Program-made: the position numbers and the translations under genes | Notes under the pieces: generated by a model | What the model was told of the DNA's origin: nothing | Database searches by the model: none | Seen by the model: the letters and a program-made list of their open reading frames with translations, nothing else | In this document: positions 4,842 to 45,578 of the stretch, one piece after another | How the letters are laid out: the number at the start of each line of letters is the position of its first letter | Numbering within the stretch: the stretch's first letter is position 1 | From: Argentina anserina | Lineage: Eukaryota > Streptophyta > Magnoliopsida > Rosales > Rosaceae | Direction: 5' to 3' | Length of the DNA: 64,000 bases | Assembly: GCF_933775445.1 (NCBI RefSeq) | Contig: NC_065877.1 | Location: 31,000,001 to 31,064,000, forward strand

Positions 4842-5296
4842 AGAAATAGAAAGACCCCATTTTTCATTTCTTTCTCATTTATCTCCTTAATGATTTCTTC
4901 ACAGGTTGCCCAAACAATAATCACAAGGGTTTGTTTTGAGCTCATTGCCTGGCATTATTGGTAGGTACCTATGTTCAGTGTTGTACCCCAGAAAAGTTGT
5001 GACTTTGATGGGTTTGCATGATTCACAGATGCAAAGGAAATGCACTTGGTGTTGAAGTTTGAAGTGGGAAAATCACAGAGGAAGTTTTGAGGGGTAAAAA
5101 GGTGTTGGACCACTGGCTTTTTTCAGATTTGGTGGTCTAATTCAGTTGGTCATCTTCAAACCTCAAGTGGGTTCCATCAGATTTCACTTGTTTGTCTCAA
5201 AGCTTTGATCTTTATGGGTTTGGTGTGCTCCTTGTGAAGCTTTATCTGGGTTTTTGTTAGCTTAGAGGTTTAGATAGAGTGGTGTGCTTTAGTAAC

Positions 5297-8200
5297 ATGT
5301 ATCTGAATTGCAGGGTGTCTGGGTTTAATGGCAGATTACCTGCTGGTTTAAAGTTAAACAAGGCAATGGAGCCCTTGGATGGGCCTAATTGTGTCACATA
5401 TTCCAGAAGAAAGCTTCTGCTTCTTGGGCTTTTGGGTTCTATTACAATTGTTTGGTTTTTCCTGAGTTTTAATGAGGGAATTCCGGGGATGATAGAGAAG
5501 ACTCCAGAGATATGTGGAGGGAAAGCTCCAATCTTGCAGCAGCATTTCAATGTCAGCAAGATCCAGCTTCTGGCTTTAGCTTCCTTGTTCTCTGAATCAG
5601 ATCAGGTGACTTTAAGCTCTTTCATTCTGTCCTTTACCTTATCATTAGTTTAGTTTGCAGCTAAGCTTCATTCTACTGTTCTTCATAGTGTTCCTTTACG
5701 CAATTGGCTTCACACGTGATTGAGATCTTCTAGTTGTATGCACTTTGATTTGGGAGTAAATTGAAATGTCTGGAAGACACTAGACTAATTTGGATCTTGG
5801 TCTCCTCTGCTGGTTTCTGGAGTTCCCAAAATCAAATGTTCTTTTCAATCAAAGGAGTTTCTAGTTGTATTGCTACACTTCAATGTTCTTAATTTTTCTT
5901 TGAATGTATAATGAATTATTGGTTTCTTTAAAACCTAGTGTTCTCACAGTACCTTGAGTTTTATATACTTCAATAAGGCATACATTGAAGATATATCTGT
6001 AGCCAATTCAATATGCTATGGACAGAAATACACAACTATCTCATTTCTCTTCCTTCCTCTCTTCCTCCTCTAGAGTCGGTAGAAAGGGGATGGGGGAGGT
6101 AGAGGACTAGAGGGTGGCTGGTAGGTACCCAGCTGCGAGTTTTGCAAAATCCCTAAAATTTCCTATATGGCATTGTGTTGTGATGCTGCAGTTCTATTCT
6201 TCTGGCATTTGTATGAACTAAGTTGTGAACTTTGATCGATTGAAATGAGATAGTGTCACTTTAAGTGATCATATGCTATAAGGCTCCTGGGACAGAATCA
6301 TGCAATTCATTCCTCCTGAATAATGCCATATGTTAAATGTGTATCGAAGCTTTTAACGTTGCATGTTTCCAGTTCTTCTTATTAGTCTCCGTATCCATTG
6401 CAGATAGCATCCCTTGAATGTACTAAAGAAACAGGACCTGGGTTGCTGTTAACTGAAGGCATTTCCTGTGCCCTGAAGGCAGTGTGCTCAGAAAAGACAG
6501 AATTTCAAAAGCATCATAACTCGGTGGAAAAATATGTTGAAGCTGAGGATCAATGCCTGGTTCAAGATGAAAACATCCTGAGGAGGCTTGACATTCTGCA
6601 AGAAAATTCGTTGCTACAGAAAAATTCGTTGGCACACATTTTGCAGTCTGCAGAATCCACTGATAGGATATATGAACAGGTAGAACTTTGATACTTGCAA
6701 TAGAAAAGCAGAATTATGAGTTTTAGAAATAAATGGAACCTCTTAGGACCCTTTGTATGTTCTTTCTCTCATGATTGCATATCTTTCTTTCCTACTTCAG
6801 TTATAAGTATGACATCTTTCATGGAGCATGCATGTATCTACTACTATTCCAAAGTCGAAAATCATATACGGTATTTATGTATGTAAAAAAGTGGATGAGG
6901 AACTGCTTATCTGTGGGCAATCTCTTCATTACAAATGATTTTATCTGTCTTTCTAATCTGAAAATAACAACTATTGAACTAAACAGAATTTCCTTTTTTT
7001 GTCTATATATTGTTAGGACGCAATGGAATCAGGGGCGAAAGTAGTTAGCGCAAAAATAGATTCTCAGATTGATTGTTGTTTGTTAAGGGGATGTTCATGG
7101 GTTTTTGTTGGAATGATTTTATGCTACCAATTGTCTGGTTTATCTCTGAAATTATGGAGGAAACTGAGGCAGAAGCTGGTTAATGAGTGCTCCTGCCAGC
7201 AGAAAATGGTTCAAGAGCAGCCATTGGGTTGTAGGAAGCAGCCCGAGAAACAGCAACAACAAATCCAGAGCCCTCCTAAGGTTGCATGCACGTGGAGGAA
7301 GAAGCTCCTAATCGTATTTGTCTTCTTTGGAGTAATCACGTCAATTTGGTTATTTTTCCACTTGAATGAAAGAGATTTTTTGTGGAGAGAAGAAACACTT
7401 GCCAACATGTGTGATGAACGAGCCCGAATGTTGCAAGATCAGTTCAATGTGAGCCTGAATCATGTTCATGCTCTAGCTATTCTTGTCTCCACCTTTCACC
7501 ATGGAAAGCATCCTTCTGCCATTGATCAGGTATGTCTCATACCTATCTTAAAGTTGTTCTTTGGTTACTGGATTATATTTTCTCAAATCATGAACCTGGT
7601 TCATTGGACCATATTAATAAAATAACTCATTCCAGTGGCATCCAGATTGCATTGATTGTGAATCAGAACCAATGTTTTGATATGACACGTGTTGCTAGTG
7701 AGTGATACACATGGAGTATGATATTGGAAGTATTTATTCTGTAAACACCGCTTCTATCTCTAGGATAGGTAAACAACTATTGGGCTTAACTGTAGATTAA
7801 TGTAAAGGGAAAGGGTTTTTAATACATACAGATATATCACATAGTGTCCAATGCATATCAATTAATTGGCACTTTTACCTAATATCATACTGTAGTTCCA
7901 ACCCTTTTTTGGTCTATATGTGAGCGATATAAAAAATTCTGTAAAGGCAAATGGGGTGGTCATGTGCCCCATTTCCTTCACCCAGCTTGTTAGCAGCTGT
8001 GCAAATGCTGAAGGATTTTATTTTATAAAGAATAATTAGGAAGAAAACCAAAAAAGCTAATTAGCTATCGATGTGCTCCTATGCTGTGCTATGTGGTTGT
8101 GGATAACAATGATGATGATGGTGATTATTATTTAAATTATTATTATTATTTGCAACAGAAAACATTCGGGGAATACACAGAAAGAACAGCATTTGAGAGA

Positions 8201-11200
8201 CCACTTACTAGTGGTGTTGCTTATGCTTTGAAAGTTACTCATGCTGAGAGGGAACAATTTGAGAGGGAACATGGATGGACAATAAAGAAAATGGAAACTG
8301 AGGACCAGACTCTTGTCCAAGATTTTCTTCCAGAAAGCTTGGAGCCTGCTCCTATTCAAGATGAATATGCGCCAGTAATATTTTCTCAAGAAACTGTCTC
8401 ACATATTGTCTCGATTGACATGATGTCAGGAAAGGTTTGCCTTTATCTTTCCCTCTCTCTCTTTCTCTCTCTCTCTGTTATGTTATTATTATTATTTTTT
8501 TATACTGTACCCCAGTGCTGTAGCACTTTCATCTTCAGCTCCTCTATTCATGTGTATGCCTTTACTAAATCAAAACTGTATTCAAATGAAATTTAGTACA
8601 TCTTCATTTAGATCAAAACCTTCATATGAATAATGTACAGACATAGTTACGGCTTGGTGTTTCCATAAATATGAAGACAGACAATGCGAAGTTTTATTTA
8701 GGCTGTTGGGGTTTAAAAATTAAGTTGTCTGAGCAACAAGATCTATGGTTGTTGATTCTTTGGCTTTGGCATGGTATCTGGTTTTTGAAAGACAAACTTT
8801 TGGTTTCTTGTGGTCCTACTTATTGGTCATTTCTTTTTTGTCATAGTCAACTTTTTAATCAGGAAGTTTTGTCTATTAGCTGAGATCCATAGTTCATGGG
8901 TCATTAATTTTCTGTAAAGAATATTAGTTAATTGCCTCTACAATCAGTAGTTCCTAAACCATGTTCTAATTTCCATTAACCATTAACATATGCTGATGTT
9001 AAAAACTGTTGATTAAACAATATAGGATGACCGTGAGAACATATTGCGAGCAAGGTCGACAGGAAAGGGAGTACTGACCTCCCCCTTTAAGCTATTGAAA
9101 TCCAATCACCTGGGTGTTGTTCTCACATTTGCTGTGTATAATATTGACTTGCCTCCAGATGCCACATCAAAAGAACGAATTCAAGCGACTGTGGGGTACT
9201 TTTGCGACCATGATCTTTTTTCATCCTTTTGTTTTGTTTTGTTCTCAATAATTACTAAAATGCTTTATAATAGGTACCTAGGTGCATCTTACGATGTCCC
9301 ATCTCTTGTGGAGAAGCTCCTGCACCAACTTGCCAGCAAGCAAACAATTGTTGTGAATGTTTATGATACAACTAATGCATCTTCTCTGATCAACATGTAT
9401 GGAACTGATGTTATTGATACTGGGCTGTTGCACATTAGCAGCCTTGATTTTGGTGATCCACAGCGCAAACATGAAATGCATTGCAGGTTAGATCCGATAC
9501 ATCATTAATCTTATATGTCAGCCTAGATATGACTGAATTTAATTTTTTCCCTCCAATGAAAACTGTTATCTTTGGATTGCAGGTTTAAGAATAAACCTCC
9601 TTTTCCGTGGACAGCAGTAAGTGCATCAGTAGGAGTCCTAGTCATTACCTTGCTAGTTGGTCATATATTTCACGCGGCCATAAGCCGAATAGCAAAGGTA
9701 GAGGCAGACTTTTGTGAGATGATGGAACTCAAAGTTCGGGCAGAAGCTGCAGATGTGGCCAAATCTCAGGTACAAGGCATCCCTTTTGTTTTAGTATAAA
9801 AATTTGTCCTTCAACCAACAGTCGTTTCTCAATTGAAGGATATTCTCTTTGATCATGTTGCCTGACTTTTCTCTCTACTGCAGTTCCTTGCAACTGTTTC
9901 CCATGAAATCCGGACACCAATGAATGGTGTCTTAGGTAAGTGAAATAATTCTTCATGAACCAGTTACTGTTTTGCAAAACTTGCATGGTAACATTGTTTG
10001 ATAATCGTTCAATCAAAATCCAGGTATGCTGCAAATGCTGATGGACACAAACCTTGATGCAAACCAGCAAGATTATGCTGAGACTGCTCATGCTAGTGGA
10101 AGAGATCTTATCTCACTTATAAATGAGGTTCTTGATCAGGCCAAAATAGAATCAGGCCGGCTGGAACTTGAAACTGTACCTTTTGATCTTCGTTCAGTGC
10201 TTGATAATGTTCTATCACTTTTCTCAGGAAAAACGAATGAAAAGGGGATTGAGGTAAAAAAAAAGAAATTAAATGATGACATTTTTGATTTGGTCTTTGC
10301 TGTAGTTCTTGATATCAGTTATAATATATGGTTTTTGGTTTTGTTTTGGGTGAGAAAAGTTGGCTGTTTATGTCTCCAATACGGTCCCAGAAGTTGTCAT
10401 TGGAGATCCAGGTCGCCTTCGGCAGATAATCACTAACCTTGTGGGGAATTCTATTAAGGTAAGATATGTTTCCTAATTATTGTTGGGGCAAAACTCTTCC
10501 CTTCCCATTTTACATTATAGATATGTTACAAGTTCATGAGTTTTAATTACTATGCTAATCGTTTGTTTGTTTGAAACTGAAGTTTACCCATGACAAAGGA
10601 CACATATTTGTTTCGGTGCACCTGGCAGATGAAGTGAGGGGTCCCCCTGATCTTATGGATGAAGTTCTAAGACAAGGCTTGAATTTAGTTGGAGACCTCT
10701 CAAACAAAACTTATAATACATTGAGCGGCTTTCCTGTGGTTGATAGATGGAAAAGCTGGGAACATTTCAAAACCCTAAGCAGCACAACAATGCAGGAACC
10801 TGATAGAATTAGATTACTTGTAACAGTTGAGGATACAGGTGTAGGTATTCCACTAGATGCACAAAGTCGCATCTTCACACCTTTTATGCAGGCTGATAGT
10901 TCAACTTCTAGAACTTATGGTGGTACTGGAATTGGATTGAGCATTAGCAAACGTCTGGTGGATCTCATGTGTGGGGAGATAGGGTTTGTGAGTGAACCTG
11001 GCATTGGTAGTACCTTTTCATTTACGGGGTCATTTGAGAGAGGAAAAACAAGTTCTTTAGATACGAAGTGGCCCCAGTATGAACCAGCTGTGTCAGAATT
11101 TCGAGGACTGAGAGCACTGGTAATAGATAAGAGAATCACCCGGACTGAAGTCACAAGATATCACATGCAGAGATTGGGAATATCTGTCGATATTGCTTCC

Positions 11201-12633
11201 AGTCTAGAATCAGCATGCTCTTATCTATCTAGTACGAGCAAGACAAGGTGAGTTTACCTTTTCAAGTATTATTTTATTCTTGGAGAAAGTTCCATATACT
11301 TCACCCCGAAAAGCAAAAAAGTTCATATCCTTCTTTTCAAAAGTTTGATAGAGAAGAGGGTGCTAATATAGCTTAAATTTTATGAAGCTTCTATGAGCAA
11401 CTACTAACTTCTGTTTTGATTTGGCTAATACTGTTAACGCTCCCGCTTGCAGCCTATCCACATGCTTAGCCATGGTTCTTATCGACAAGGATGTTTGGGA
11501 TAAAGAAACTGGTCTTACATTCCATCAGTCAGTTAAAGAGCATAGGCAAAACTGCAGCGTGGGGTCTCCCTTGAACTTTCCGAAGATATTTCTTCTGGCT
11601 ACCTTCATTAGTGCAACTGAACGTAATGAACTAAAATCTTCTGGTCTTGTAGATAATGTATTGATAAAGCCTCTTCGGTTAAGTGTCTTAATAGCCTGCT
11701 TCCAAGAGGCACTTGTAAGTGGTAAAAAGAGGCTTGTGAACATAAAAAAACCAACTCTTGGAAAGTTACTACGAGGAAGGAAGATTTTGGTAGTGGATGA
11801 CAATGCAGTCAACAGAAGAGTCGCAGAAGGTGCTCTAAAGAAATATGGAGCGATTGTCACTTGTGTTGGTAGTGGAAAGATTGCTTTAGACATGCTTAAG
11901 CCACCGCACAACTTTGATGCTTGTTTTATGGACCTCCAAATGCCAGAAATGGATGGGTAATCAATCTGCTTGGTCTCTATTCTCTCATTTCTGTTTTATA
12001 TTTGAATTCAATAGAAGAAGAGAATACATCCTACATACTTTAGGATACTAGGAAAGGTCTACGAGTTTTGTTTGGTAGCTTATAGAACACCTGATTGTAG
12101 CCTCGGTTGGAATCATGAAGCCAAATTTCAGAACACATAATGACTTGGTAGCACTAGTTTTTATGTACTGGTTAATATGCTTAGGCATTTCTTATATGTT
12201 AGTTCTTCGAGTTTAGCTAGTGTTGGGGTCTGAGATTTTATATTATAATATTATCTTTTTATTTTTTCTTTTAGTATAAAGGAAATATCAAGAAGAAATT
12301 TAGGTGTTGACGGCAAATGTTGTCCATTCTATGTTCCTCCTATTTCAGTACTTATCAGCTGGAATACCGTCTTTATTTTACAGATTTGAAGCAACTCGTC
12401 GAATCCGCTATTTGGAGACTGAGGTAAATGAGAAAATTGCATCTGGGGAAGCACCAGTTGAGATGTTTGGCAATGTGGAGGATTGGCACACACCAATATT
12501 AGCCATGACGGCTGATGTGATTCGGGCTTCAAATGAAGAGTGCAAGAAGTGTGGGATGGATGACTACGTGTCAAAGCCATTTGAAGAAGAACAATTATAT
12601 ACAGCAGTAGCAAAATTTTTTGAGTCTGGTTGA
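5297..12633 (+). CDS. HK2: Cytokinin receptor histidine kinase 2 (hybrid CHASE kinase)
   Basis: Membrane cytokinin receptor that autophosphorylates on His and starts a His-Asp phosphorelay. Thirteen coding exons join in frame to 1247 aa: 5297-5605, 6404-6679, 7017-7529, 8159-8434, 9026-9195, 9274-9486, 9583-9769, 9884-9935, 10024-10253, 10360-10458, 10583-11247, 11453-11956, 12384-12633. Membrane segments are near residues 39-57, 220-237, 290-309 and 597-616; the CHASE ligand domain is about 322-560. The phosphoacceptor is His655 in [10 protein letters not shown]; the ATPase N box and the DTGVGIP and GGTGIGL motifs follow. The C-terminal receiver has Asp1112/1113, phosphate-accepting Asp1157 and Lys1229. 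Met at 5297 is the first ATG after an in-frame TAG at 5258; Met at 5366 is an alternative. The long N-terminus with extra membrane segments matches AHK2 rather than AHK3/AHK4. All key residues are present. Confidence 0.96.
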
Positions 12634-21600: not shown

Positions 21601-22524
21601 GATTTGAATTTGATTATGTAAGGCCAAAGATCAGTACTTTCTTGTTCTCTGATGATTTATTGGATGAAATGTGGTATTTTGTTTGTTTCATCTTTATTAT
21701 GACTTAATTATCAAAAAGAATACTTGAGAATCCCCCAAATTAATTTAGAATTCGTTGTTTCTTATTGAATATCAAGTCTTCTGTGCCCAAAGCATCTTTC
21801 AGCTGTTGCAATGGAAAGGATGTGTGGGGTGGGGTTAGCAAATTTTATTCAATTGGTTGAGATAAATCACTTGCTGGCCTTCAAGCGCCTTCTTTCGGTT
21901 TAAAATTCAACCGAGGGATCATAATTTCAGAATGTCTAACCTTCATCGGTTGGGAGGTTAATAGGTGCAAGAGAAAATTGAAGGAAGTGAAGATCATGAA
22001 GTTACCAAATGAATCAAATTTATGTAAATAAACAATCTAAGCTATCTTACACTTTCGCTGAGGATGACTTTAAGTTATCTTACACTAGCTGAGTATACAA
22101 GATAAACTGGGAAAGGGGATTGATCCTGTGGTATCTTCTCTTTTACCAGATATGAAAATTTAATTCAGCCTTGGAGATTTGAAGTTTCTGTTCACTTTCC
22201 CAAATGTGTTTCTGATTACTTTCTCAAATGCACAGGAACTAAGCTGCTTTTTACCTGTTATCTTTATGGTATGATTACTCACAGATCTCCTCATTCAGTC
22301 ATTCTTTGATGCAGATTATGCTGTATGCTCGTTCTATAGTAGGCTGTGACCTCTTTGTCCCAGATATTGGTACAACCAAGGCCTTTTGTTGTCATAAAGG
22401 GACTGTTCTACCAAGAGAATTCAAGGTTTCCTATAAAGCTCCCATGAACACAGTATAACATACATAGAGAGAGCAATCTTTTGGCAAGAAAAAACGAATA
22501 CTTCATTGTTGCAGCTCTAGTCCA
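18650..22524. other. Intergenic region and 5' flank of the GRAS gene
   Basis: AT-rich DNA with no supported gene. Short ORFs (for example 20028-20246) have no recognisable domains. From about 21.1 kb the DNA looks like a transcribed leader: CT-rich at 21110-21140, T-rich between, and a typical acceptor (tgttgcag at about 22507-22514) just before the GRAS start. A 5'UTR intron is therefore likely, as in many PAT1-type genes, but its donor cannot be fixed by eye. Confidence 0.45.
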
Positions 22525-24180
22525 ATGCAAGCGTCAAAGCAGCTCAGGAGTTTAGGTATGTCGAAACAGTTGCACTATCAACCGATGCAAGAAGTAGAAG
22601 CCTATTGCTTATCTCCATTCCGAATCTTGGACCACCAGCCGCCATACAATGAGAGCAGCCAAAGCACCCACTCCACAGCTCAGAGTTTCCACAAGAGGTA
22701 CTGCACATTGGAGTCATCCTCAGCAAATGGCAGCTACAATGCTCTTTATAACTCCTCATCAACTGGCAGTTTCTCACCCAATGGAAGCCCAATGTCACAG
22801 CATGAGCAAGATTCTCATTACCAGCATCATTCTCCTAATCACACGTACGGCTCTCCAATAAGTGGGTCCTGCATCACCGATGATGCAACTGACTTCAAGT
22901 ACAAGCTAAAAGAATTAGAAACTGCAATGCTTGGCGATTCCAATATCTTTGACAACTATTGCAGTTCCCTTCAGAATGGGGCAAACAATCCCAGGCCAGA
23001 AGTGGACAGCTGGGGGCAGATTATGAACTCATTATCTAAGAAGGATTTAAATCAAGACCTCATCTTCTGTGCAAAAGCAGTAGCGGATAATGATCTGTTG
23101 ATGGCACAATGGATGATGAATGAACTGCGTCAGATGGTTTCGGTTTCTGGTGAACCAATTCAAAGGTTGGGAGCATACATGTTGGAAGGATTAGTTGCAC
23201 GTCGAGCAGCCTCAGGGAACAGCATCTGTAAAGCACTGAGATGCAAAGAACCAGCAAGTTCTGAACTGCTGTCTTACATGCATATTCTTTATGAGGTCTG
23301 TCCCTACTTCAAGTTTGGGTATATGTCTGCAAATGGAGCCATTGCTGAAGCCATGAAGGATGAAAATAGAGTCCACATCATTGATTTTCAAATTGGTCAG
23401 GGGAGCCAGTGGTTGACTTTAATTCAGGCTTTTGCAGCAAGACCTGGAGGACCACCCCATATTCGAATAACTGGCATTGATGATTCGATGTCAGCTTATG
23501 CCCGAGGTGGAGGACTCAATATTGTGGGGAAGAGGCTATCTAAGCTTGCAGAGATGTTTAAGGTGCCATTTGAGTTCCATGCTGCTGCTATCTCTGGTTG
23601 TGATGTTCAGCTGGAGAATCTTGGGGTGAGACCTGGGGAGGCTTTGGCCATGAACTTTGCATTTATGCTGCATCATATGCCAGATGAGAGCGTCAGCACT
23701 CAGAATCATCGTGACCGTCTGCTGAGGTTGGTTAAGAGCTTGTCTCCAAAAGTCGTGACACTTGTTGAGCAAGAATCAAACACAAACACTGCTGCATTTT
23801 TTCCGAGGTTTGTGGAAACACTAAATTACTACACGGCTATGTTTGAGTCAATCGATGTAACGCTTCCGAGGGATCACAAGGAGAGGATCAATGTCGAGCA
23901 ACACTGCTTGGCCAAGGAAGTTGTGAACATTATAGCTTGTGAGGGGGTCGAGAGGGTGGAAAGACATGAGCTTCTCGGGAAGTGGAAGTCGCGGTTTGCA
24001 ATGGCAGGATTTACTCCATACCCTTTAAGCTCCTTGGTGAATGCAACCATCAAGACACTGCTCGAGAAATACTCTGACAAGTATAGGCTTCAAGAGAGAG
24101 ATGGGGCGCTCTATCTCGGCTGGAAGAGCAGGGATTTGGTTGCTTCTTGTGCATGGAAGTGCACATCCGGCACCAACTGA
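22525..24180 (+). CDS. PAT1: GRAS transcription regulator, PAT1 subfamily
   Basis: Nuclear/cytoplasmic GRAS-family regulator; PAT1 in Arabidopsis acts in phytochrome A signalling. It is an uninterrupted 551-aa frame, as is typical of this intronless coding family. The N-terminus (residues 1 to about 170) is variable and rich in Ser, Gln and His. The GRAS domain then runs to the end: leucine-rich region I (LNQDLIFCAKAVADND, then RLGAYMLEGL), VHIID at 283-287 followed by FQIGQG, the PFEFH stretch, the VSLSPKVVTLVEQE-type region with TNTAAFFPRF, then RVERHELLGKW, and the SAW motif ending in W533 and W544. The GRAS core closely resembles Arabidopsis PAT1, but SCL5, SCL21 and SCL1 are close paralogues, so the symbol is tentative. 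The start is the first ATG after the probable splice acceptor; an in-frame ATG at 22558 is an alternative. Confidence 0.93.
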   Translation: MQASKQLRSLGMSKQLHYQPMQEVEAYCLSPFRILDHQPPYNESSQSTHSTAQSFHKRYCTLESSSANGSYNALYNSSSTGSFSPNGSPMSQHEQDSHYQHHSPNHTYGSPISGSCITDDATDFKYKLKELETAMLGDSNIFDNYCSSLQNGANNPRPEVDSWGQIMNSLSKKDLNQDLIFCAKAVADNDLLMAQWMMNELRQMVSVSGEPIQRLGAYMLEGLVARRAASGNSICKALRCKEPASSELLSYMHILYEVCPYFKFGYMSANGAIAEAMKDENRVHIIDFQIGQGSQWLTLIQAFAARPGGPPHIRITGIDDSMSAYARGGGLNIVGKRLSKLAEMFKVPFEFHAAAISGCDVQLENLGVRPGEALAMNFAFMLHHMPDESVSTQNHRDRLLRLVKSLSPKVVTLVEQESNTNTAAFFPRFVETLNYYTAMFESIDVTLPRDHKERINVEQHCLAKEVVNIIACEGVERVERHELLGKWKSRFAMAGFTPYPLSSLVNATIKTLLEKYSDKYRLQERDGALYLGWKSRDLVASCAWKCTSGTN

Positions 24181-24931: not shown

Positions 24932-26806
24932 TTAACCTTGAACAGGTTGCGCTTTTGGCTTTTGCTTTTCTTGCTCTGATGGAATACTCCCTGCCTCGCC
25001 ATTCTGCAGTTTATTTGCTCTGCAACCAATAGTATCAGGGGGGTCACCTTCTTCTCGGACACACTCTTTACCAATCAATTGTTCATTTGATTTTCTTTCA
25101 GTACCCAAATCAGAATCAGCAACCGTACTAGAGGCAGCAGCATCTATCCTTGGTGATTTAGTTCTTGGCTCGAGACCAGGTTGCTCGATTGGTTTAACTT
25201 CACATTGTGGGCAAGCACATGTCCCAGTAACATGTCTGGCAGCATACTCTTCTACTTTGGTTCCAGGGTCATTAATCTGGGCTGCTGGCAACACATTTGA
25301 TGCTGCAGTATTAGGTGTGACAATCCTTGAGGGGGGCACATCATGGTCATGTTGCCCCTCATATGTGGCCATGACCACTTTTGAATCATTAAATGCCCTC
25401 TCGACATGTTTCTTAACAGGACATCCAGGATGTGAGCATCTGTAGTAACTCCTACACAAAGCAATTGCAAAAGCAAAGACGTGAGAAGAAAGCTCCAAAG
25501 TAATAGCTCATACCAAAGAAATCAGGACCAACTACAGATTAACAGATTCCCTACACATCCTACTCTGACAAACCTACTGAATTAAACTAATGCACATAGA
25601 ATCATATGTGCAAGTTAAATGAAGAAAAAGTATGCCTTACTGAACAAGGGATTAGGTGCACACTTTACATAAGAAAATTAAAAAGCAGACCATTTAATCT
25701 ATATATACCTGGGATTTGGATTTCCTTTTACTAATTTTTGCCCATATTTGCGCCATCTGTACCCATCATTGACAATATCAACCTCACTCATAGTCTGAAC
25801 AACAACACGCGGTTGACGAGTTGGCTTATTTATCAGAACGTAGTTTCCATTATGTTTTTCCTTCTTCCTGTTTTTTTATTGGTCAAGGGCAGTTAAACAA
25901 AGGTGAGATTGACCAGAATATCGAGTTAGGAAAATATAGAATAGTTAATGCGATAACATACTGTCTTTTTGGGTCTGGATCACCATCTCTTGTTCTATTA
26001 GATAGAGAGAGAACACCCTGCACAGCTTCATTCTCTGCAGCATTTGAATGCTGAAGGGGTTCTACTGGCTCCGTGCTGTTAGATGTGTTGCCATGCGCCT
26101 CCAACGGTTTATCTTCATATAAGAGGTTATCAAATAAATAATGGACCAAATTTCTCAATGTAAAAGCCAGAACCAGAACCAGATATAACTAAGTAAGTTT
26201 ATCACCTTCACCACTGGTTAACAACAGCTGCTCTGCTTTATCTTCACCAACAGACACAGCAAAACCAACAGCTATAGGGACACTCAGTTGAGGTTTAGGA
26301 TGTTCATGCTGGCCAAAGTAAACGGTATCTGTTATCTGCCCATTATGGGCGCGTTCAACTTGCCTCTTCACGTCACATTTAGGATGGGTACATCTGTAGT
26401 AACTTCGTACATATATATTTCCCCTAACAAGTTTCTGGCCATATTTCCTCCAGTTATAACCATCATCTAATGGTTTCACACGCACTCTAACTGAAGTGCT
26501 TCCTTCATGACCAGGTTGCAAGACAAGAGCACGAGTCTCAGGTGTCAGCAATGCTTTCTCAGATGTTAATGAGGAAACACTTCCTTCTTGAATTGATTCC
26601 AATGCAGTAATACCCCCATAAAGCACCTGCAATGCTTCATTATGTACTTCAGATGGAGCACTTCCTTTCTCATCTGACTTCAACGGACAGACCCCATTAG
26701 TTGGTGTTTGATGTGGTGTCACACAGCTTTCAGTATCAACATTCTTTTTCTTCGGTACTTTATCAGTTGCAACTTCATCCGTTACATCCTCCCCTGGCGA
26801 AACCAT
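24932..26806 (-). CDS. WRKY1: WRKY1-type group I transcription factor (two WRKY domains)
   Basis: Nuclear W-box-binding regulator. Four coding exons on the minus strand (26806-26206, 26112-25962, 25867-25709, 25451-24932) join to 476 aa; Arabidopsis WRKY1/ZAP1 is 487. Domain 1 has WRKYGQK at 119-125 with zinc ligands Cys139, Cys144, His167 and His169; domain 2 has WRKYGQK at 289-295 with Cys309, Cys314, His338 and His340. In the second domain the intron splits the Arg codon of the PRSYYR motif, the conserved family position. A basic stretch KRQKKEK (249-255) may be a nuclear signal. The C-terminus ends [12 protein letters not shown], echoing WRKY1. ATG at 26806 is the first after an in-frame TGA 15 codons upstream. 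A 5'UTR exon probably lies near 27.55-27.7 kb. The gene converges with the GRAS gene. Confidence 0.95.
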
Positions 26807-29640
26807 GTGAGCTTGATTCTTATACCAGACACGAGCTTCTAGTTCAACTCACAGTCCGGTCAAACAACTTGCCTTGCCTCCAAATAATGCACATGCTGCT
26901 CCATATTCAACTCTGTTCATGTAAACGAGCACAAGTACAGCAAGGTCAGAACTTGCTAGCTTCAGAACAACTCAGAGCAATAATAATTATAAAAAAAGAA
27001 CAGAACTTGGACACTCCCATCAGTCACTTAAAAGCCATAACCATGTCTAATACAAACTTTGCTGGCTACATCTGAAAAGCAGTCGTAGAAGCAATATTAC
27101 AAGTACTACTTCCGAAATTTCGCTACTTCATTAATGAAACCATTCTCCAAAATTAAGTTAAAACCTTCTCCACCACTAACCAACCACCAAAAAATTCACC
27201 CAGATAGAAAATCGAGGTCACAAACTTTAAAAAGGTGATTTTTTTTTAATATAAAATTCCAGAATTAAGTGAAGCAATCCCATTAGTACTACTCTACTAG
27301 CTCAGCTCTAACAGTTCATTAGGGTTTTAGACAGCTTTGACTCACACAATGGAAACTAAACAGCTCAATTACACTAATTTAAATTTCAAAATTTTCACAT
27401 TTTCAGCAGCCAAACAGAGCCTAAGCCAATCAAGAGCTACAATTTCAGCAAATTAATCTCCCAAAGTATAAAATTCCAACCAAACAACTCTGTGAATTCC
27501 GGGTTTGGAATAAAAAAATTCAAAATTTACTGAAACAAATAATCAGGAAAACAATAAAATTGTGGAGCTGAGAGTTCAAACCGTATGAATTTCGCGATCA
27601 GGCGGTCCGAAACCGGCGGCGGGGGAGTGAATCGGAGGCGGTGGGGATTAGAGCTCCGGGACGAGAATTGGGGATGAGTGAGGGAGGTAAGAGTCGACGG
27701 AGTACTGGGTTTTTTTTGTTTGGTCTAATCCATAATTACGATGGGGGAAGAGAAAGAGGAGGAGAGATGGGTTGGGTGGGAGGAGGTGCAGGGAGGAATC
27801 TGTGGAGCTTAGTTGGTATTGGGTTTTAGCCTTTAGGGCTCTATCAGGCTCTATGGGTGTGAGAAGAAGAATATGATTACACGGGGGGTGGGTGGGTGGG
27901 GGGGGGGGGGGGGGGGAGGCAAGCATGTGGACCATAGGAGGCTTAGTTCCTCCTTGGGGTTTGGACCGGGCCATCATATTTCTCTTTTTGTGTTCGTCAA
28001 AGTGTGATGTATAATCATATTTATGTTCCTCTCTTTGATTTCCATTTCTCTTGATTTGGTATGTACATCTTGATTCAATAATGTGTTTTCTTTGGTGTAT
28101 TATATTTTGTGCCTTTTCAGGTTCGATTTGTTTCTCTTCATGAGTTTAATTGGTTCTGAAAGTACGATTTGAGTTATGTATGGTCGCGCAGTTCCGGTGT
28201 TTTTGACGTTGTCGCTTTGCTAGTGTATGACTATTGTACATATCCGCCGCCTTAGGATTCCAGGACCGACCCATAGAGACTATCTTATTTTTCCCAACCA
28301 AGAGAGACATCAATGACGTCAACATTAGATCGATGACGCCCACCACTGCATCACGGACCTGAACTAAAACACCTCAAAGAACCTTTGCCACCTCTAACCA
28401 CACCGGAAAACGGATTGACGCACCTCTGTGCCACTACCAAAGTAACCAAATCATTGATGAATAAGTCAAAGTCTTGAGAAGACCTGTTTCATCCATATAT
28501 AAGTCTTTGGATGTGATATTGGGAAATTAGAGTTGCACCTCTAAAATTGCTATATATATCTCTATTACTAAATACACCTCATTTTTCATTTTTTATTTAC
28601 TTTAAAATTTAAGTATACCTCGTCATACAATCATACTTACCAAAATACCCTCCATGTGTTTTTATGTTTATCAGTAATCTATTCTTGTTTACAATATGAA
28701 ATCACAATTAATTTAGATATGATGATTCTTTGGAGGATTGGATCAAAGTATACCTTCCAAGTTTCTAAGCAATCCTATTATGTCGATGCTACTCATGAAT
28801 TTATGCAACATGAGGAACTATGGGTTCTCTGTTAATTGTCCCCACTCTTATAGAATTTGGAAACATGAGCAGCCTTGTGTTCATAGATTACTAGACACAA
28901 ACACACCTGCTTGATATAGTTGAATAACTATATAAGGTGGTTATTTAGAGATATGGGTGGTTACTTAGAGATATAAGTGGAAACTGTTAAGATATTTCTT
29001 ATTTTGAATTATCTGTTTATTTTACAAGTTACTATTATATCCCTCCCTATTTTACGAGTACTAATCTATTTTAATCTTTGAAGGTTAAAATTGTACATTT
29101 TTTTTAGAAATGGTTAGGAAGCCCTCTTCTGATTATTAGAGTATAGATATGAGTTAATCAAATTTCCTATCATCATAATTTTTTATCAAATAACAAAAAA
29201 TCTTCATAGAAATCTTTATATAAAGACATTAGATAAATATCAATTTGTCTTTTTCTGTCTTTTCATAAGCATTGACAAAGTCAAATCAAAATATAAAAAA
29301 AATAGAGGTACAAGTAGCAATTTCAGAGGTGTTACTAGAACCTCTTATGATATTCTCTATTTAAGTATATGTGCATGTTAAAATATGCTCAACTAGACAT
29401 CTCATTTGCTATAAACTTATAATGTTGTAGTAATGGCTGAGTGTGGCCACACAATGTCATTGCTTGGTCATAACACATTTATGACGATATAATAATATAT
29501 ATTCTATACCCTAACGTGAAAAACACATTAATAAACGATGTCAGAATATGCTCAGATTTAAGTAAGACTGACACTCTTTAGTGAAGACCAATTGACGCTC
29601 TTATGTCAGCCGTTGGGCATAACCCTCCCACTACATAACA
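26807..29640. other. WRKY1 5' leader, promoter side and AT-rich spacer
   Basis: For the minus-strand WRKY1 gene this is upstream DNA. 27580-27700 is GC-rich (accggcggcggggg type) and is the best candidate for its first non-coding exon. A long G tract sits at 27883-27919. From about 28 kb to 29.6 kb the DNA is AT-rich, with no gene and no clear repeat ends. Confidence 0.45.
27883..27919 (+). repeat. G-rich tract with quadruplex potential
   Basis: A run of G blocks (GGGGGG T GGG T GGG T, then about 19 G) on the plus strand, so C-rich on the WRKY1 coding strand. It contains more than four G3 blocks separated by single T, the classic intramolecular G-quadruplex pattern. It lies about 1.1 kb upstream of the WRKY1 start codon and some 200-300 bases beyond its probable first exon. 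Confidence 0.85.
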
Positions 29641-33667: not shown

Positions 33668-35003
33668 AACAACATCACAAGCTCTCCTTATCTTTTCACT
33701 GCTTCGTCAATCACCAATCACGATTCTGAGTTCAAGAATCCAAAGCAACGCATCTTGAGATCACGAGTTTGGGTACATATGCAATTTGGGATTAGTGGTA
33801 TGATGTTTATGATTTGAAGTTTGTTTTGAAATGTGTATCAATGAAACACGAAATTAGTCAGAGTTAGAAGCTAGAGAAAGTTTTGTTTTGGTTAGATTGC
33901 TTTGGGATTTCGGGTTCATCTGTTATTGTTGGTTGTTAGTTTGGTTTGCAGTATGATTCTTGATTCTGTGCATATTGAGGTTTGCTGGTTCTGAACATAA
34001 TTTCTTGGGTAATTGAATGATGTTTGAATGGGTATATAATAATTTCTGATAATAAAAGGAATGTACTGGTGGCAGTTTGTATTATTATCCATCGGAGGAT
34101 GAATATTGGTCATTTGGTTCAAAGGAGATGACCTTTGTAGTTTCTCTGACCTTATTGGTTTATGTTGAAATGTAGATCATGTGTTTGTCATTGTTTCTTT
34201 TCAATGCCTTTATGACAGACATGAGCTTTATAGGCTGATGCTGATAGAGTGCTCTAGCTTTTTGCAGAGCCTACTTGGTAGAGGGTAATATATCAGAGAT
34301 GCTAATAATGTTACAGTTGGATAATCTTAGTTAGGGGAAGGCAAAACTGTAGAGTTTTTCCAAGTTAAGAGTAGTATGGGACGATTTTCCCTTTAGTTGA
34401 GAAGAGACTGGCAAGACATATGACATACAGTATTAGATTCAGTCATGCATGTCCTTTGTTTGACAATTGAGGCCTCAGAATACTAGAAGCTTGCTATTTC
34501 CTTAGATATTATCTCTGCTACCGTATGTTTGTTACCTGATTTCATAGTAGATTCACTTCCAGGTAATCTTCCTCTTAGAGCAACTCCAATAGAGAGGTCA
34601 AATTTTGTTGTTAATTTTGAATTTTGACATGTGACATGTCAAATATGACAAGAAGTTAATTTAACAAATCTCATCTCCAAGGGAGATGTTAAATTTGAAA
34701 TATTTACCATGGAGTTAAACATTCAATAAGACATGTAAATAAGTAAAAATAACAATTGAATAGATATGAGCTGCTGTTTTATATTGCTACTATGTTACAT
34801 ATTGTCCTCCATCTTCATAAATGAAGTTTGAGTTTGTAGACTTGGCAAGTTTAATAGCCTTTGCTAGTTTTAAGAAATATGATTAATAACTCTGATAACT
34901 CATCTGAAAACTAACATGCATAGTTATATTCAATATGCCTAGCTACAACTACTTTATACCTTTGATACCAACAAGCATTTATAACGTTTATTGGAGGTAA
35001 TAT

Positions 35004-35340
35004 AAATTTACTAAAGTTTATTACCTCTGGTAAACTTCTACTGGGGGTATTAAACTTGAAAAACAGTATTTCTAAAGGCCATAACACACCTTAAAACGAA
35101 GAAAAATCAACTTAGATGCAAAAAAATAAAGTTTACTGGGGGTAGTAAAAATTTACTAAAGTTTACTAGAGGTAGTAAACTTCTACTGGGGGTATTAAAC
35201 TTGAAAAACAGTATTTCTAAAGGCCATAACACACCTTAAAACGGAGAAAAATCAACTTAGATGCAAAAAAATAAAGTTTACTGGGGTAGTAAAAATTTAC
35301 TAAAGTTTACTACCTCTAGTAAACTTTTACTGGGGGTATC
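35004..35340. repeat. 145-bp tandem duplication bearing a hairpin
   Basis: The block starting taaacttctactggggg at 35031 recurs at 35176 and, partly, at 35320 (offsets 145 and 144). The copies are almost identical across the shared aaaaacagtatttctaaagg and ttagatgcaaaaaaataaag segments. Each unit boundary carries an inverted repeat, aaagttta..taaactt, around a 6-base loop. The loop reads acctct in the first and third boundary and its reverse complement agaggt in the second. Confidence 0.85.
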
Positions 35341-36356
35341 AAATCTATGATACCTGCATCTGTAGTATTGATTTAGGCCATACATAATAAAAGGTATGAA
35401 ACTACTTAATGAAGGCTTTCCATGATTGTCACCTTCTTGCTGTGGCAGCTTGACTGCTGTTTAGGCTTTCCTAAAAGCAGCTGTCTAGGTTACCACCCTA
35501 TAGAGTGCCCCAATAATTGGTGCATTGTGATATAATGATAGTCTGATATACCATATAGATTCAAGCAGTCTGTCCAATCAATCAACCAAATACACAGGTG
35601 TTTGCTTGTACCTTATGATTACATTCTGGTTTAGTTTTCTTCCTCCATTTTTTAGTTCATATGTCGACCCTCATATACAGATATTATGAGATGCTTCATT
35701 TCTGAATGGAAACTTATCACGATATGGAAATAATATCATTTATAGGTAGATTAATATATCTTGAGTTTAAGTTTCAGCTTTTCTCACCTTTATGCAATGT
35801 TTATGGAGTGAGAACTCTTACACGGTCTTGATATTAGACACATCAAGGAGGGGTGGTTTTGCCAAATCTTACCGAAAGACTTTGATTAAGAGGCTAGGTG
35901 TTTGTTAAATGTGACATCTGATCGAATTTCACAAATTCTGAAACGTAGAAGTGATGCTAAGTACATGTTATGTAGTACTGTGTTAGTAATACAATCCTCA
36001 ACATGTTAGTTGTTAGATCACTTAGATGCATAGAATTTTAGTGTACCACATGTGTATCTAAATAAGTTCAATTACTGTTATGATTAATTTAAACATCTCT
36101 TGTTGTTTTGAATTCAATCAAATTAACATATATTCATCTTCTGCATTCTTTAGGTAAATAGCCATTCTGATTAAGGAGAGAGTTGCAGTAACTTACAAAA
36201 TAGCAGTGTTCCCAAGGTATCTCCTCAAATTTGAACCTTAACAACAAATGAACTATATTCTTGGACATCATGTTAACTTATGTATTTGGTGACATGTGCA
36301 TGGTTCCTATATAGTTGTGTACTTGATTGTTTGTTTTCATTACGTATATGTGATAG

Positions 36357-40242: not shown

Positions 40243-40324
40243 AAATTAATCCTTCCCCATTGAATTCCAGCATCAAACTCTTCTTCATCCCAAACCCGAA
40301 CCCTAGTTCCCCACCTCCTCAACA

Positions 40325-41818
40325 ATGCTCGGAACTCCGGGTCGCTCCCCCCGCCACCTCTCCTCCCCTACCCCCTCTGCAATTTCCGATTACTCCACCT
40401 CCTCCGCCGCCGTCGCCACCACCCCCAGAAACCCTAGCGGCGGCGCCTACCCGAAGGTCCTCGACGAAGACACTTACGTCGCCGTCCTCGAGAAAATCAT
40501 CGAGCGCGACTTCTTCCCCGACCTCACGAAGCTCCGCGACCGCCTCGACTGGCTGGAGGCCATCAAGACCCGCGACCCGATCCGGATCCGAGATGCCCAG
40601 CTCCAGATCATCGAGCGACGCGGCCACAAGGCGACCCGCACCACTCCAAACCCTAGCGCCGCCAAAACCCCCGGCTCCACTTTCCTCCGCAGCTGCACGC
40701 CCCTCGATGACTTCGACAACAAAACCCCCATAGCCCCCGCCGCGGTCCCCACCGCCGCCGGAGTTGGCTCCGGCGGAGACGGGATTGAGGAGTCGCTGAG
40801 TTTGGACCAGTTTGTGAGGAGGTATACGAGTGAGGACAATGAGAGCTTCACGAAGATTCTGGAGAAGGAGAATAGGAAGAGGAAGGAGAGGTATGATTAT
40901 CTCTTGGAGGGCGAAAACTCCGATAAGGCGGCGGCGATTGAGGATGCGAAGAGGAATAGGATAACAGATGGATATGGAACTTCGGATCAGCCGATGAGTA
41001 CATTGGAAGGGTGGAAGTTTACGGCCAAGAATCTGTTAATGTACCACCCTGCCGACCGCGGTGAGGCGCCGCTGACGCTGGAGGAGCGGGCGGTGAGGAT
41101 GAAGAGCTTGGAGAAGGAGATTAGCCGCACCAATACGAGGTTTCATGGCAAGATGATGGATAGGCCGAGAGAGGAAGGGAGCTTTGAGGTGCTGTATGCT
41201 CCTGTGGCTGGGGGGACGCCCGTGATTATGGATAGAGACGGGGATAAGCTTAAGAAGTATGATTTGGATGATTTGAGGAAGACGCCGCCCAATCGCTTTT
41301 ATGTGGAGTCGGAGAAGAAGGCAGACAATGGGTATACCTTTGTGAAGACGCCGTCCCCTGCACCGGGGGTTGATGAGTCACCGTTTATAACGTGGGGTGA
41401 GATTGAAGGGACGCCGCTGAGGTTGGAGCAGGAGGACACTCCTCTTGATATTGGTGGGAGTGGAGGACCACATTTTAGGATTCCATGCCCGGGTTCGAGA
41501 GAGGAGAAGGCTTACTCACTGTCGAGAGTAGCTGCAAGGAAATTGAGGGAGAGGGAAAAATTGTTTCCGAAGCCGCCTTTGCCATCGCCTTCCAGAGCTG
41601 GTAGCGCCAGTCCAAGTGTGAGGACGCTCTCTCCTGCTGCGCAGAAGTTTGTAAGGAATGCAATTGCCAAGTCTTCGTCGACTGTTGATGAAACTCTTAG
41701 AGCCAGTTATCGAGGTTCAAGTCCTGGTCTGGCTACTCCTAAAGGTGGAAGGAGTGTGTCAAGGTTTAGTACTATGAAATCCAGATCACCTTCTGCAAGG
41801 GAGGGCTCACCTTGGTAA
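40325..41818 (+). CDS. ESS2: Splicing factor ESS-2 homologue (DGCR14/Es2 family)
   Basis: Nuclear protein of the Es2/DGCR14 family, associated with the late spliceosome (C complex) in animals. One intact exon encodes 497 aa, close to the family's usual 450-530. The opening is Ser/Pro/Thr-rich and low-complexity, then the conserved Es2 start LDEDTYVAVLEKIIERDFFP (about 43-62) followed by LRDRLDWLEA. Further conserved blocks are SLDQFVRRYTSEDN, the KENRKRKERYDYL helix, GWKFTAKNLLMYHPAD, NTRFHG, and near the C-terminus ITWGEIEGTPLRL, FRIP and SREEKAYSLSR. The tail is Ser/Arg-rich with SPS motifs that may be phosphorylated. The first 450 bases are strikingly GC-rich compared with the neighbours, and a spurious frame overlaps there. 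Start is the ATG at 40325. Confidence 0.95.
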   Translation: MLGTPGRSPRHLSSPTPSAISDYSTSSAAVATTPRNPSGGAYPKVLDEDTYVAVLEKIIERDFFPDLTKLRDRLDWLEAIKTRDPIRIRDAQLQIIERRGHKATRTTPNPSAAKTPGSTFLRSCTPLDDFDNKTPIAPAAVPTAAGVGSGGDGIEESLSLDQFVRRYTSEDNESFTKILEKENRKRKERYDYLLEGENSDKAAAIEDAKRNRITDGYGTSDQPMSTLEGWKFTAKNLLMYHPADRGEAPLTLEERAVRMKSLEKEISRTNTRFHGKMMDRPREEGSFEVLYAPVAGGTPVIMDRDGDKLKKYDLDDLRKTPPNRFYVESEKKADNGYTFVKTPSPAPGVDESPFITWGEIEGTPLRLEQEDTPLDIGGSGGPHFRIPCPGSREEKAYSLSRVAARKLREREKLFPKPPLPSPSRAGSASPSVRTLSPAAQKFVRNAIAKSSSTVDETLRASYRGSSPGLATPKGGRSVSRFSTMKSRSPSAREGSPW

Positions 41819-43706: not shown

Positions 43707-44154
43707 GCGCTGCCGTTGTGCACCATTTTCTTCTCCTAATCAAACACTGATTCTCTTTTTCTTTTGGTTTGCCCAAATCATATATACGTTCAAAGAATTT
43801 GACTTTGCTGCCCTTCAAGATTCTTCAACTCCTCAGTTCTCAGGTACCCTCCCTCTCTGTTAATGCATGTAAATCATATGCTGCTCTCTATATATAATAG
43901 CTTCAATTTGAGCCCTTATTCAATTCACATTGTGCTGTTCAAGCTAAGAAATTTCATACCCTTTTACGTAATTCTTAATCTTGGAGTGTTAATTAGCTTC
44001 TAGGGTCTTCTTAGAATTCGATTTTTCGAGGTATAATCGCATAAAGTTGTGAATTTTACTGTTTATTTCCATATGATCACATTATGGTAGTGGTGGCAAT
44101 GCTAGTTTTTAGTCTCAAGTGGTTTGTTGTAACTTTGCAGGTTGAATTGGGAAG

Positions 44155-45578
44155 ATGGCAGTTAAGGATACTAGTACATTTGATCCAGAATCCGAGCCCT
44201 TTGTGGAGGTTGATCCAACAGGGCGGTTCGGGAGGTATGATGTTCTGCTTGGCCAGGGTGCTGTCAAGAAGGTCTACAGGGCGTTTGATCAGCACCAAGG
44301 TACCGAGGTTGCATGGAACAAGGTGCGGTTGAGGAACTTCTGCGACAATCCAATGCTGTTGAATCACCTCTACGCCGAGGTTAAGTTGCTGCAGGAACTG
44401 GAGAATAAGTACATTATTGAGTGTTACAGTGTTTGGAAAGATGTGGAGCGTCACGCTTTGAATTTTATAACCGAGGTGTGTAATTCCGGGAATTTGAGGG
44501 ATTACAGGAAGAAGCATCGGCGTGTGAATATTAAGGCGTTGAAGAAGTGGTCTAAGCAGGTGCTTGAGGGATTGGAGTACCTGCATACTCATGAGCCGTG
44601 CATTATTCATAGGGATCTCAATTGCAGCAACATCTTCGTCAATGGGAATAATGGACAGGTAAATTTACTTTACTGGTCACGTAGGGATAAGGTGGATGGT
44701 GTTTCAATTGTTTGGTTGTATGTGACATGACAAGCACTAGGTTATAAGTTAGAGGAGCAGAAGTGGAGCTATATAGGGGCCTGGGGTGGCCCTGGTCCCC
44801 TCAAGCTTCCATTTTTAGAAGCTTACTTCTGCAATCCTAGCTCTGCTATGAGCTTCAGTGTTATATTTAGGCCTAGTCTTCCGAGGTGAAAATGAATTGG
44901 GGACTAAGGAGGTGGAATTCTGATATTCTGCATGTTTGGTTAACCTTGGAATCGTACATTACTATATCAGTTTATCTACATTCTTTACTGCATAATCATG
45001 ACCGATTGTAATTTAGAGTCTTTGATATGCATTCCAATATCTAGTTTTCCTGAAAAACAAGTAGTCCCTTGCTTGTTTCGACTGCAGAGTTCAACCTCTA
45101 ACAATAGAACAATGTAGCAAGTCAATCTTGGCTTTCTCTCATAATAATGCATAAATTTACAACCTCTAACCATGATGAATTTCATTTACAGGTGAAGCTC
45201 GGTGATCTGGGATTTGCAGCAATACTGGGGAGGAGCCACAAAGCACATACTGTTCTAGGGACACCTGAGTTTATGGCACCTGAGCTCTATGAGGAGGATT
45301 ACAATGAGATGGTGGACATATACTCGTTCGGGATGTGCTTGCTGGAGATGGTAACGATGGAGATACCATATAGTGAATGTGACTCCGTTGTCAAGATATA
45401 CAGGAAGGTCACAGCTGGTTTAAGGCCTGACTCCCTATCCAAGGTGGCTGATCCAGAGGTGAAGGCATTTATTGAGAAAGCCTTAGGCCAGCCGAGGGCA
45501 AGACCTACAGCCTCTGAGCTACTGAGAGACCCCTTCTTCCTTGAAGTTATTGCTGAAGAGCCTGATCCGAGCTCCTGA
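44155..45578 (+). CDS. WNK11: WNK-family Ser/Thr kinase, WNK11-like
   Basis: Small plant With-No-Lysine kinase, 296 aa, two exons (44155-44658 and 45192-45578, phase 0). The ATP-binding Lys is absent from subdomain II (VAWNKV, Asn55) and instead sits in the glycine loop GQGAVKKVY as Lys38, which defines WNK kinases. The catalytic loop HRDLNCSN gives Asp154; the metal-binding motif is GDLG (Asp173) instead of DFG, as in other plant WNKs. [11 protein letters not shown] and the [11 protein letters not shown] segment complete the kinase fold, which ends near 285 with PFFLEV. There is almost no tail after the kinase domain, which fits WNK11 rather than the long WNK1-type members. A 5'UTR intron is likely (43844-44140). 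Confidence 0.94.

What the first reader, a model, noticed from the sequence alone, without database searches (positions are those of the whole stretch)
5297..8434. HK2 exons 1-2 look like a decayed copy of exons 3-4 (TM plus half CHASE)
Seen directly: exons 2 and 4 are both exactly 276 nt, phase 0 at both ends. Aligned without gaps, about 21 of their first 55 residues are identical (for example EDQ followed by LVQD at the same index). The last part of exon 1 (residues 37-103: membrane segment, then FNVS and an Ala-Leu-Ala helix, ending SDQ) matches the end of exon 3 (membrane segment, FNVSLNHVHALA, ending IDQ). The receptor thus carries a degenerate half-CHASE module before its real CHASE domain, separated by another membrane segment. 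Known: AHK2-type receptors have longer N-termini with extra membrane segments. Inferred: these arose by tandem exon duplication, and the extra module sits in the same compartment as the ligand domain.
Basis: partly seen in the sequence, partly recalled or inferred. Interest (0 to 1): 0.75.

Follow-up and report, generated by a model that had tools for sequence, protein, structure and literature searches.

The report
Duplicated half-sensor in receptor HK2
The HK2 class of plant cytokinin receptors carries, ahead of its hormone-binding domain, an ancient and remodelled extra copy of that domain's membrane anchor and dimer-forming stem, made when the gene's first two exons were duplicated before the main flowering-plant lineages split.

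Summary
Confirmed. The window holds the HK2 cytokinin-receptor gene of, probably, Argentina anserina. Exons 1-2 are a tandem copy of exons 3-4: BLASTP 47/135 identical; copy-1 versus copy-2 profiles E 9.7e-53. A copy-1 profile's only significant PDB match is the AHK4 CHASE structure (E 1.3e-17; next 0.46). Intron positions and phases match. The unit is both exons whole, including an upstream membrane segment missing from the window's gene. Copy 1 of eudicots, monocots and magnoliids forms one clade: one event before they split, probably after HK2 parted from HK3. Amborella and water lilies were not sampled. It is more than decay: a dimer-contact loop is 9 residues shorter in 137 of 147 rows, another contact is Tyr-to-Cys (135/147), and a second cysteine is in 144/147. 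It lacks the PAS core, so hormone binding is unlikely; I infer a lumenal structural or assembly module; a relic is the main rival. Exon 2, a 0-0 cassette, is absent from 10 of 157 rows. The loop was known; a 2023 paper guessed in one sentence that it is a degenerate sensor. No structure prediction ran.

The parts
5297..5605 (+). HK2 exon 1 (aa 1-103): N-terminus, membrane segment aa 40-58 (5414-5470), stem aa 61-103 on the lumenal side (inferred); 5' half of copy 1
   Evidence: P0001 begins at M24 of this reading and matches it
5549..5557 (+). N-V-S glycosylation motif of copy 1 (N85); copy 2 has the same motif at N339
   Evidence: N85 in 146 of 147 rows; sequons listed
6404..6679 (+). HK2 exon 2 (aa 104-195), phase 0-0: copy of exon 4
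   Evidence: exon 2 versus exon 4 profiles E 2.1e-23; exon-2 profile finds AHK4 CHASE in the PDB, E 1.3e-8
6419..6421 (+). Cys109 codon, copy-1 specific; aligned with predicted dimer-contact Tyr372 of copy 2
   Evidence: C in 135 of 147; Tyr372 column Y 145, F 2
6554..6556 (+). Cys154 codon, copy-1 specific
   Evidence: C in 144 of 147; aligned copy-2 column T/S/A/P, no C
7017..7529 (+). HK2 exon 3 (aa 196-366): membrane segment aa 213-231 (7068-7124), linker, membrane segment aa 293-311 (7308-7364), CHASE stem; counterpart of exon 1
   Evidence: exon 1 5' part versus exon 3 5' part E 5.7e-10; TM+stem parts E 4.7e-27
8159..8434 (+). HK2 exon 4 (aa 367-458), phase 0-0: first exon of the Pfam CHASE domain; counterpart of exon 2
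   Evidence: PF03924 E 3.3e-11
9026..12633 (+). Exons 5-13: rest of CHASE, last membrane segment (aa 597-615), kinase and receiver parts; not duplicated
   Evidence: exon borders; hydropathy; no copy-1 profile matches any of nine later windows

Best explanation
What it is (shown): in an ancestor of HK2 the first two exons (upstream TM, linker, TM, stem helix, first CHASE exon) were duplicated in tandem. The 5' copy lies in front of the complete receptor and was kept in magnoliids, monocots and eudicots. How it works (inferred): copy 1 adds a second loop, anchored by two membrane segments, on the side of the membrane where the hormone sensor is. It keeps the stem register and an N-glycosylation motif, has lost most of the predicted dimer-contact residues, and never had the PAS core with the key hormone contact. 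It therefore acts as a structural or assembly module in the ER lumen or apoplast, probably tied by its own cysteines, that affects folding, membrane placement or packing of the HK2 dimer, and does not bind hormone. Because exon 2 is a 0-0 cassette, it can be skipped or lost without breaking the frame, leaving only a short stem loop.
For: Origin: BLASTP and shuffles. Copy-2 HMM finds copy 1 in 145 of 147 rows at E<1e-3, reversed sequences in 0 of 147. hhalign E 9.7e-53 over 211 columns; three collinear pieces match at E 5.7e-10, 4.7e-27 and 2.1e-23, while six off-diagonal pairs and 27 comparisons with later windows give E 0.0032 or worse. PDB searches with profiles of copy 1 (9 rows), exon 2 alone (12 rows) and stem alone (12 rows) each put AHK4 CHASE first. 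Phase-0 introns at the same places in both copies and in HK3 and HK4 of the same genome. Copy 1 is one clade, support 100/100, in a tree of 32 rows. Function: from the FNVS asparagine to the exon end copy 1 has 19 aa in 137 of 147 rows, copy 2 has 28 aa in 147 of 147, and the window genome's HK3 and HK4 also have 28 (sequences); C109 135/147, C154 144/147; topology by flanking charges.
Against: Exon 2 is no better conserved overall than the 5' part of exon 3 (TM and linker): mean pairwise identity 0.30 against 0.29, with 0.83 for exon 4 (67 rows). 10 of 157 rows lack exon 2. The two cysteines are not lost together: of 15 rows missing one, none misses both, so an obligate C109-C154 bond is unsupported, and the number of cysteines in the loop is odd in 93 of 147 rows. 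Pfam does not see copy 1 as CHASE. A 2023 AlphaFold-Multimer study left this AHK2 region unfolded (PMC10779265, passages). No structure or functional test was made here.
Confidence: 0.6

Rival explanations
1. Neutral relic: the duplication is real, but copy 1 is kept only because its two membrane segments set the topology; the loop sequence drifts and has no job.
For: Exon 2 identity equals that of the exon 3 5' part (0.30 against 0.29); the last 37 residues of exon 2 are the least conserved (0.25). Exon 2 absent in 10 of 157. Even a close relative diverges there: 63/88 with Fragaria P0003, against 91/92 in exon 4.
Against: Nearly invariant positions in a fast background: N85 146/147, C154 144/147, C109 135/147, also in most of the magnoliid and monocot rows.
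Confidence: 0.3
2. Second ligand sensor: copy 1 binds a cytokinin-like or other small molecule.
For: Descent from a sensor exon; of the 22 AHK4 pocket residues listed in PMC3491891 (passages), nine fall in the exon-4 part, and three of these keep the small residue in many copy-1 rows (G 67, A 56, A 83 of 147).
Against: The other 13 pocket residues, Asp262 included, lie in exons that were not copied. The strand-forming end of exon 2 is its least conserved part.
Confidence: 0.04
3. The duplication happened before the HK2/HK3 split and HK3 lost copy 1.
For: HK3 also has an upstream membrane segment; its likeness to the first segment of copy 1 is weak (c-Evalue 0.0064).
Against: Holding copy 2 and HK3 together without copy 1 is rejected at p-AU 0.037, whereas copy 1 + copy 2 is not (0.45). 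Only one HK3 and one HK4 were in the tree and copy 1 evolves fast, so this is weak.
Confidence: 0.15
4. No common descent: chance or helix-composition similarity.
For: Both segments follow a membrane helix.
Against: All and the matching introns.
Confidence: 0.005

Closest known systems
AHK2-clade cytokinin receptors; apple MdCHK2 (PMC5611679, passages)
   Same: [quoted passage not shown] This is the same gene class and the same loop.
   Different: In the passages seen the loop's origin and its relation to CHASE are not given.
The remark on AHK2 in 'A Model of the Full-Length Cytokinin Receptor' (PMC10779265, 2023; passages)
   Same: [quoted passage not shown]
   Different: One sentence without data in the passages seen; it did not show in their models. 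Added here: homology statistics, exon unit, phylogenetic depth, shared deletion and cysteines, exon-2 absence.
CHASE sensory module of AHK4 (PDB 3t4j and six more entries)
   Same: Copy 1 aligns with chain positions 7-133 (stem and start of the hormone-binding part).
   Different: Copy 1 stops before Asp262, lacks the PAS core and the rest of the module, has a 9-residue deletion and its own cysteines.
HK3-type receptor (own genome, L008)
   Same: Upstream TM + linker + TM + stem + 0-0 CHASE exon (510 + 282 nt): the layout of the unduplicated unit.
   Different: Only one copy.

Membership tests
CHASE domain (PF03924) | Match to the Pfam profile above its cut-off | tested here: not met
   The window's copy 1 has no hit at E<=10; none of the 9 copy-1 members of A1 hits CHASE. 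Copy 2 hits at 3.3e-11.
CHASE domain (PF03924) | Homology to a solved CHASE module | tested here: met
   E 1.3e-17 copy 1, 1.3e-8 exon 2 alone, 7.7e-7 stem alone; AHK4 first each time, next best 0.46, 0.52 and 0.0018
CHASE domain (PF03924) | PAS core with the hormone contact Asp262 | tested here: not met
   Asp262 lies just behind the border of the copied exon; 13 of the 22 pocket residues in PMC3491891 fall outside the copied exons (numbering read off the alignment)
CHASE dimerisation subdomain | Seven predicted contact residues (H147, F158, K162, T171, Y175, R178, E182 of AHK3; PMC6539988 section 5 read) | tested here: not met
   Copy 2 has all seven letters at the same spacing. In copy 1 two fall in the deletion; Y is C in 135 of 147 rows, H is kept in 4, T in 34, E in 62
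Cytokinin receptor, AHK2 clade | CHASE, kinase and receiver domains, extra upstream TM segments, HK2 orthologues as best hits | tested here: met
   P0001 'histidine kinase 2 isoform X2 [Argentina anserina]', 100% identity over 95% of the query, with the Pfam domains listed; upstream TM segments
Tandem exon duplication | Collinear homology with the same intron positions and phases | tested here: met
Tandem exon duplication | Leftover similarity of the introns | tested here: not met
   No intron match above noise (best E 0.29); exon 1 versus exon 3 DNA 71% over 66 nt, E 1.3e-4. Not expected to survive at this age

The most novel reading that the evidence does not exclude
Copy 1 is a new kind of receptor part made from a dimerisation stem: its dimer-contact Tyr became a nearly invariant lumenal Cys and the other main contact was deleted, turning a reversible contact into a covalent, redox-dependent lock or assembly clamp on HK2 dimers in the ER, with exon-2 skipping as an on/off switch.
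Probability: 0.15. Interest if true: 0.8.

Novelty: new variant of a known kind. Interest (0 to 1): 0.5.

Why it matters
Cytokinin receptors differ in their N-terminal membrane architecture (4, 3 and 2 predicted TM segments in apple CHK2, CHK3 and CHK4; PMC5611679, passages). For HK2's extra segments and loop I found no more than a one-sentence guess in print. A two-exon tandem duplication explains why HK2 has more than HK3, dates the HK2-specific loop, and gives exact residues (C109, C154, N85) and an exact cassette (exon 2) to test for a role in receptor assembly, ER residence or signalling. It also warns against treating the loop as mere disorder in models.

Tried and rejected
Pfam on copy 1: no CHASE call, hence profile methods. 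Remains of the lost first TM in the window's 5' leader: best in-frame score 23 against 22 and 20 in the other frames, not above background. Another copy-1-like stretch in the genome: the two matches reported are exons 1 and 2 themselves. Intron similarity: none above noise. C109-C154 as an obligate disulphide: not supported. Nelumbo query 1-300: 6 hits, so an Asimina query was used. The two large protein searches list only the best 120 of 1154 and of 1118 hits; none of the listed names is Amborella, a water lily or a gymnosperm, but unnamed rows cannot be judged. Some listed rows are labelled 'histidine kinase 3' or '5' by their sources (for example P0121, P0122, P0125, P0134); I treat them as HK2-type because they carry copy 1. 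Rows in the tree (15 of 147), in A1 (9) and in A3 and A4 (12 of the 15 printed) were picked by hand to span lineages. dN/dS needs orthologue DNA, which was not held.

Literature: 10 searches. I saw search listings; passages of PMC5611679, PMC3491891, PMC8657898, PMC5975490, PMC6054150, PMC4378623, PMC10779265, PMC13206810, PMC6539988 and PMC1863423; and section 5 of PMC6539988 in full. Steklov et al. 2013 was seen only as cited by others. The one hint found is in PMC10779265; subscription papers and preprints are not covered.
Full report
WHAT IS THERE. The window lies in a plant genome (G000:C6:31000001-31064000). The gene at 5297-12633 (+) has 13 coding exons and gives 1247 residues. P0001, 'histidine kinase 2 isoform X2 [Argentina anserina]', is 100% identical over 95% of the 460-residue query and begins at M24, so the species is probably A. 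anserina (Rosaceae). The genome search found CHASE matches at three loci: this one, L007 (HK4-like) and L008 (HK3-like); the class names rest on similarity.

Exons 2 and 4 are 276 nt, phase 0 at both ends, with 21 of 55 identities. BLASTP of 30-195 against 281-458 gives 47/135 identities, 65.5 bits, E 1e-18 for one sequence against one; 0 of 2000 shuffles reach the score, for the whole and for each of three parts. The equal length is partly luck: 22 of 146 rows show it.

THE UNIT IS TWO WHOLE EXONS. Of 157 proteins taken from three searches, 156 plus the window were placed; P0146 was not. Exon 2 is present in 147 of these 157 rows; the copy-2 HMM finds copy 1 at E<1e-3 in 145 of 147 (misses: P0144, P0151), reversed sequences in 0 of 147. 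On a 67-row non-redundant subset of the first alignment (146 rows), copy-1 against copy-2 profiles give probability 100, E 9.7e-53, over 211 columns from the first membrane segment to the exon end. Cut into pieces, only the collinear pairs match well: exon 1 5' part with exon 3 5' part E 5.7e-10; TM+stem E 4.7e-27; exon 2 with exon 4 E 2.1e-23. The six other pairings and 27 comparisons with later HK2 windows give E 0.0032 or worse. The first piece rests on rows that keep an upstream segment of the type LFLKICRWVLVRMALNCK (for example Nelumbo, Tetracentron, Magnolia, Asimina). The four named Rosaceae proteins (P0001, P0003, P0004, P0005) and the window start after it.

OUTSIDE TEST. A profile of nine copy-1 sequences against 177,635 PDB sequences finds AHK4 CHASE at 1.3e-17; the next match is 0.46. 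Exon 2 alone (12 sequences): 1.3e-8, next 0.52. Stem alone (12 sequences): 7.7e-7, next 0.0018, a designed protein.

INTRONS. Copy 1, copy 2, HK3 and HK4 of this genome all have phase-0 introns after the ...DQ end of the stem exon and after the next exon (HK3 510+282 nt, HK4 342+234 nt). In the rows printed both HK2 copies and HK3 share a stretch that HK4 lacks, so the template was of the HK2/3 type.

AGE. A tree of 15 copy-1 and the matching 15 copy-2 rows, one HK3 and one HK4 (173 columns) puts the copy-1 rows (magnoliid, monocot, eudicot) in one clade, 100/100. The tree with copy 1 outside copy 2 + HK3 is rejected at p 0.037; copy 1 + copy 2 is not (p 0.45). The published order is HK4 first, then HK2/HK3 before angiosperm radiation (PMC5975490, passages). 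So: one duplication, before the magnoliid-monocot-eudicot split, probably after HK2 left HK3. With one HK3 and one HK4 and long copy-1 branches this last step is tentative. Amborella and water lilies were not sampled.

MORE THAN DECAY. From the FNVS asparagine to the exon end, copy 2 has 28 residues in 147 of 147 rows, copy 1 has 19 in 137 of 147. The missing stretch holds contact residues F158 and K162 of the predicted dimer interface (AHK3 numbering, PMC6539988, section 5 read); all seven listed contacts fall at the same spacing in HK2 copy 2. The Tyr175 column (Y 145, F 2 in copy 2) is Cys109 in 135 of 147 copy-1 rows; Cys154 is in 144 of 147; the matching copy-2 columns hold no Cys; N85 is in 146 of 147. 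Among 16 named magnoliid, monocot and early-eudicot rows C109 is in 15, C154 in 14 and the 19-residue length in 14. Two more cysteines (C125 111/147, C131 91/147) look younger: C125 is in 0 of the 10 magnoliid and monocot rows and 4 of the 6 eudicots of that list, C131 in 3 of 10 and 4 of 6. Against this: exon 2 as a whole drifts as fast as the exon 3 5' part (0.30 against 0.29), while exon 4 is at 0.83; and the two cysteines are never lost together (12 lack C109, 3 lack C154, 0 both).

CASSETTE. 10 of 157 rows lack exon 2, with a junction at or within five residues of the exon border (P0065, P0118, P0121, P0124, P0126, P0132, P0138, P0143, P0150, P0157); P0065, P0121, P0124 and P0126 are labelled isoform X2. 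Both placed Papaver rows lack it, which suggests loss; the isoforms suggest skipping. These are gene predictions, so annotation error is possible; P0118 also lacks part of the stem.

HOW IT MAY WORK. Flanking charges place the N-terminus and the linker after aa 231 in the cytosol, and copy 1 and CHASE on the other side. Copy 1 ends before Asp262, the key hormone contact; 13 of the 22 pocket residues of AHK4 (PMC3491891, passages) lie in exons that were not copied. Hormone binding is therefore unlikely. I infer a lumenal structural or assembly role; a relic with a merely topological role is the main rival.

PRIOR KNOWLEDGE. The extra loop is described in apple (PMC5611679, passages). [quoted passage not shown] Ten searches of the open library (listed under Tried and rejected) showed no fuller account; subscription papers were not covered.

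Noticed in passing
P0065, P0118, P0121, P0124, P0126, P0132, P0138, P0143, P0150, P0157 (orthologues); window exon 2, 6404-6679: Exon 2 is absent in 10 of 157 HK2 rows, four of them labelled isoform X2: a possible skipped cassette exon in a hormone receptor.
   Followed up: partly
5216-5296: In-frame stretch just upstream of the ATG weakly resembles the first membrane segment that other plants keep, with an in-frame stop at 5258-5260; the score is not above other frames.
   Followed up: partly
Lumenal loop of copy 1, aa 60-206: Rich in cysteine (3-7 in 133 of 147 rows) against 1-2 in 145 of 147 in the matching part of copy 2.
   Followed up: partly
22468-24180 (+); 24932-25504 and 26189-26845 (-): A GRAS-domain reading frame and two reading frames with WRKY domains (Pfam).
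   Followed up: no
40307-41815, 44146-44727, 47917-49278, 59975-61195 (+): Es2 nuclear protein, protein-kinase, NPH3 and RRM reading frames (Pfam).
   Followed up: no
34981-35343 and 55569-55935: Two tandem arrays of 145-bp and 135-bp units, 2.5 and 2.7 copies, 91 and 93% matches.
   Followed up: no
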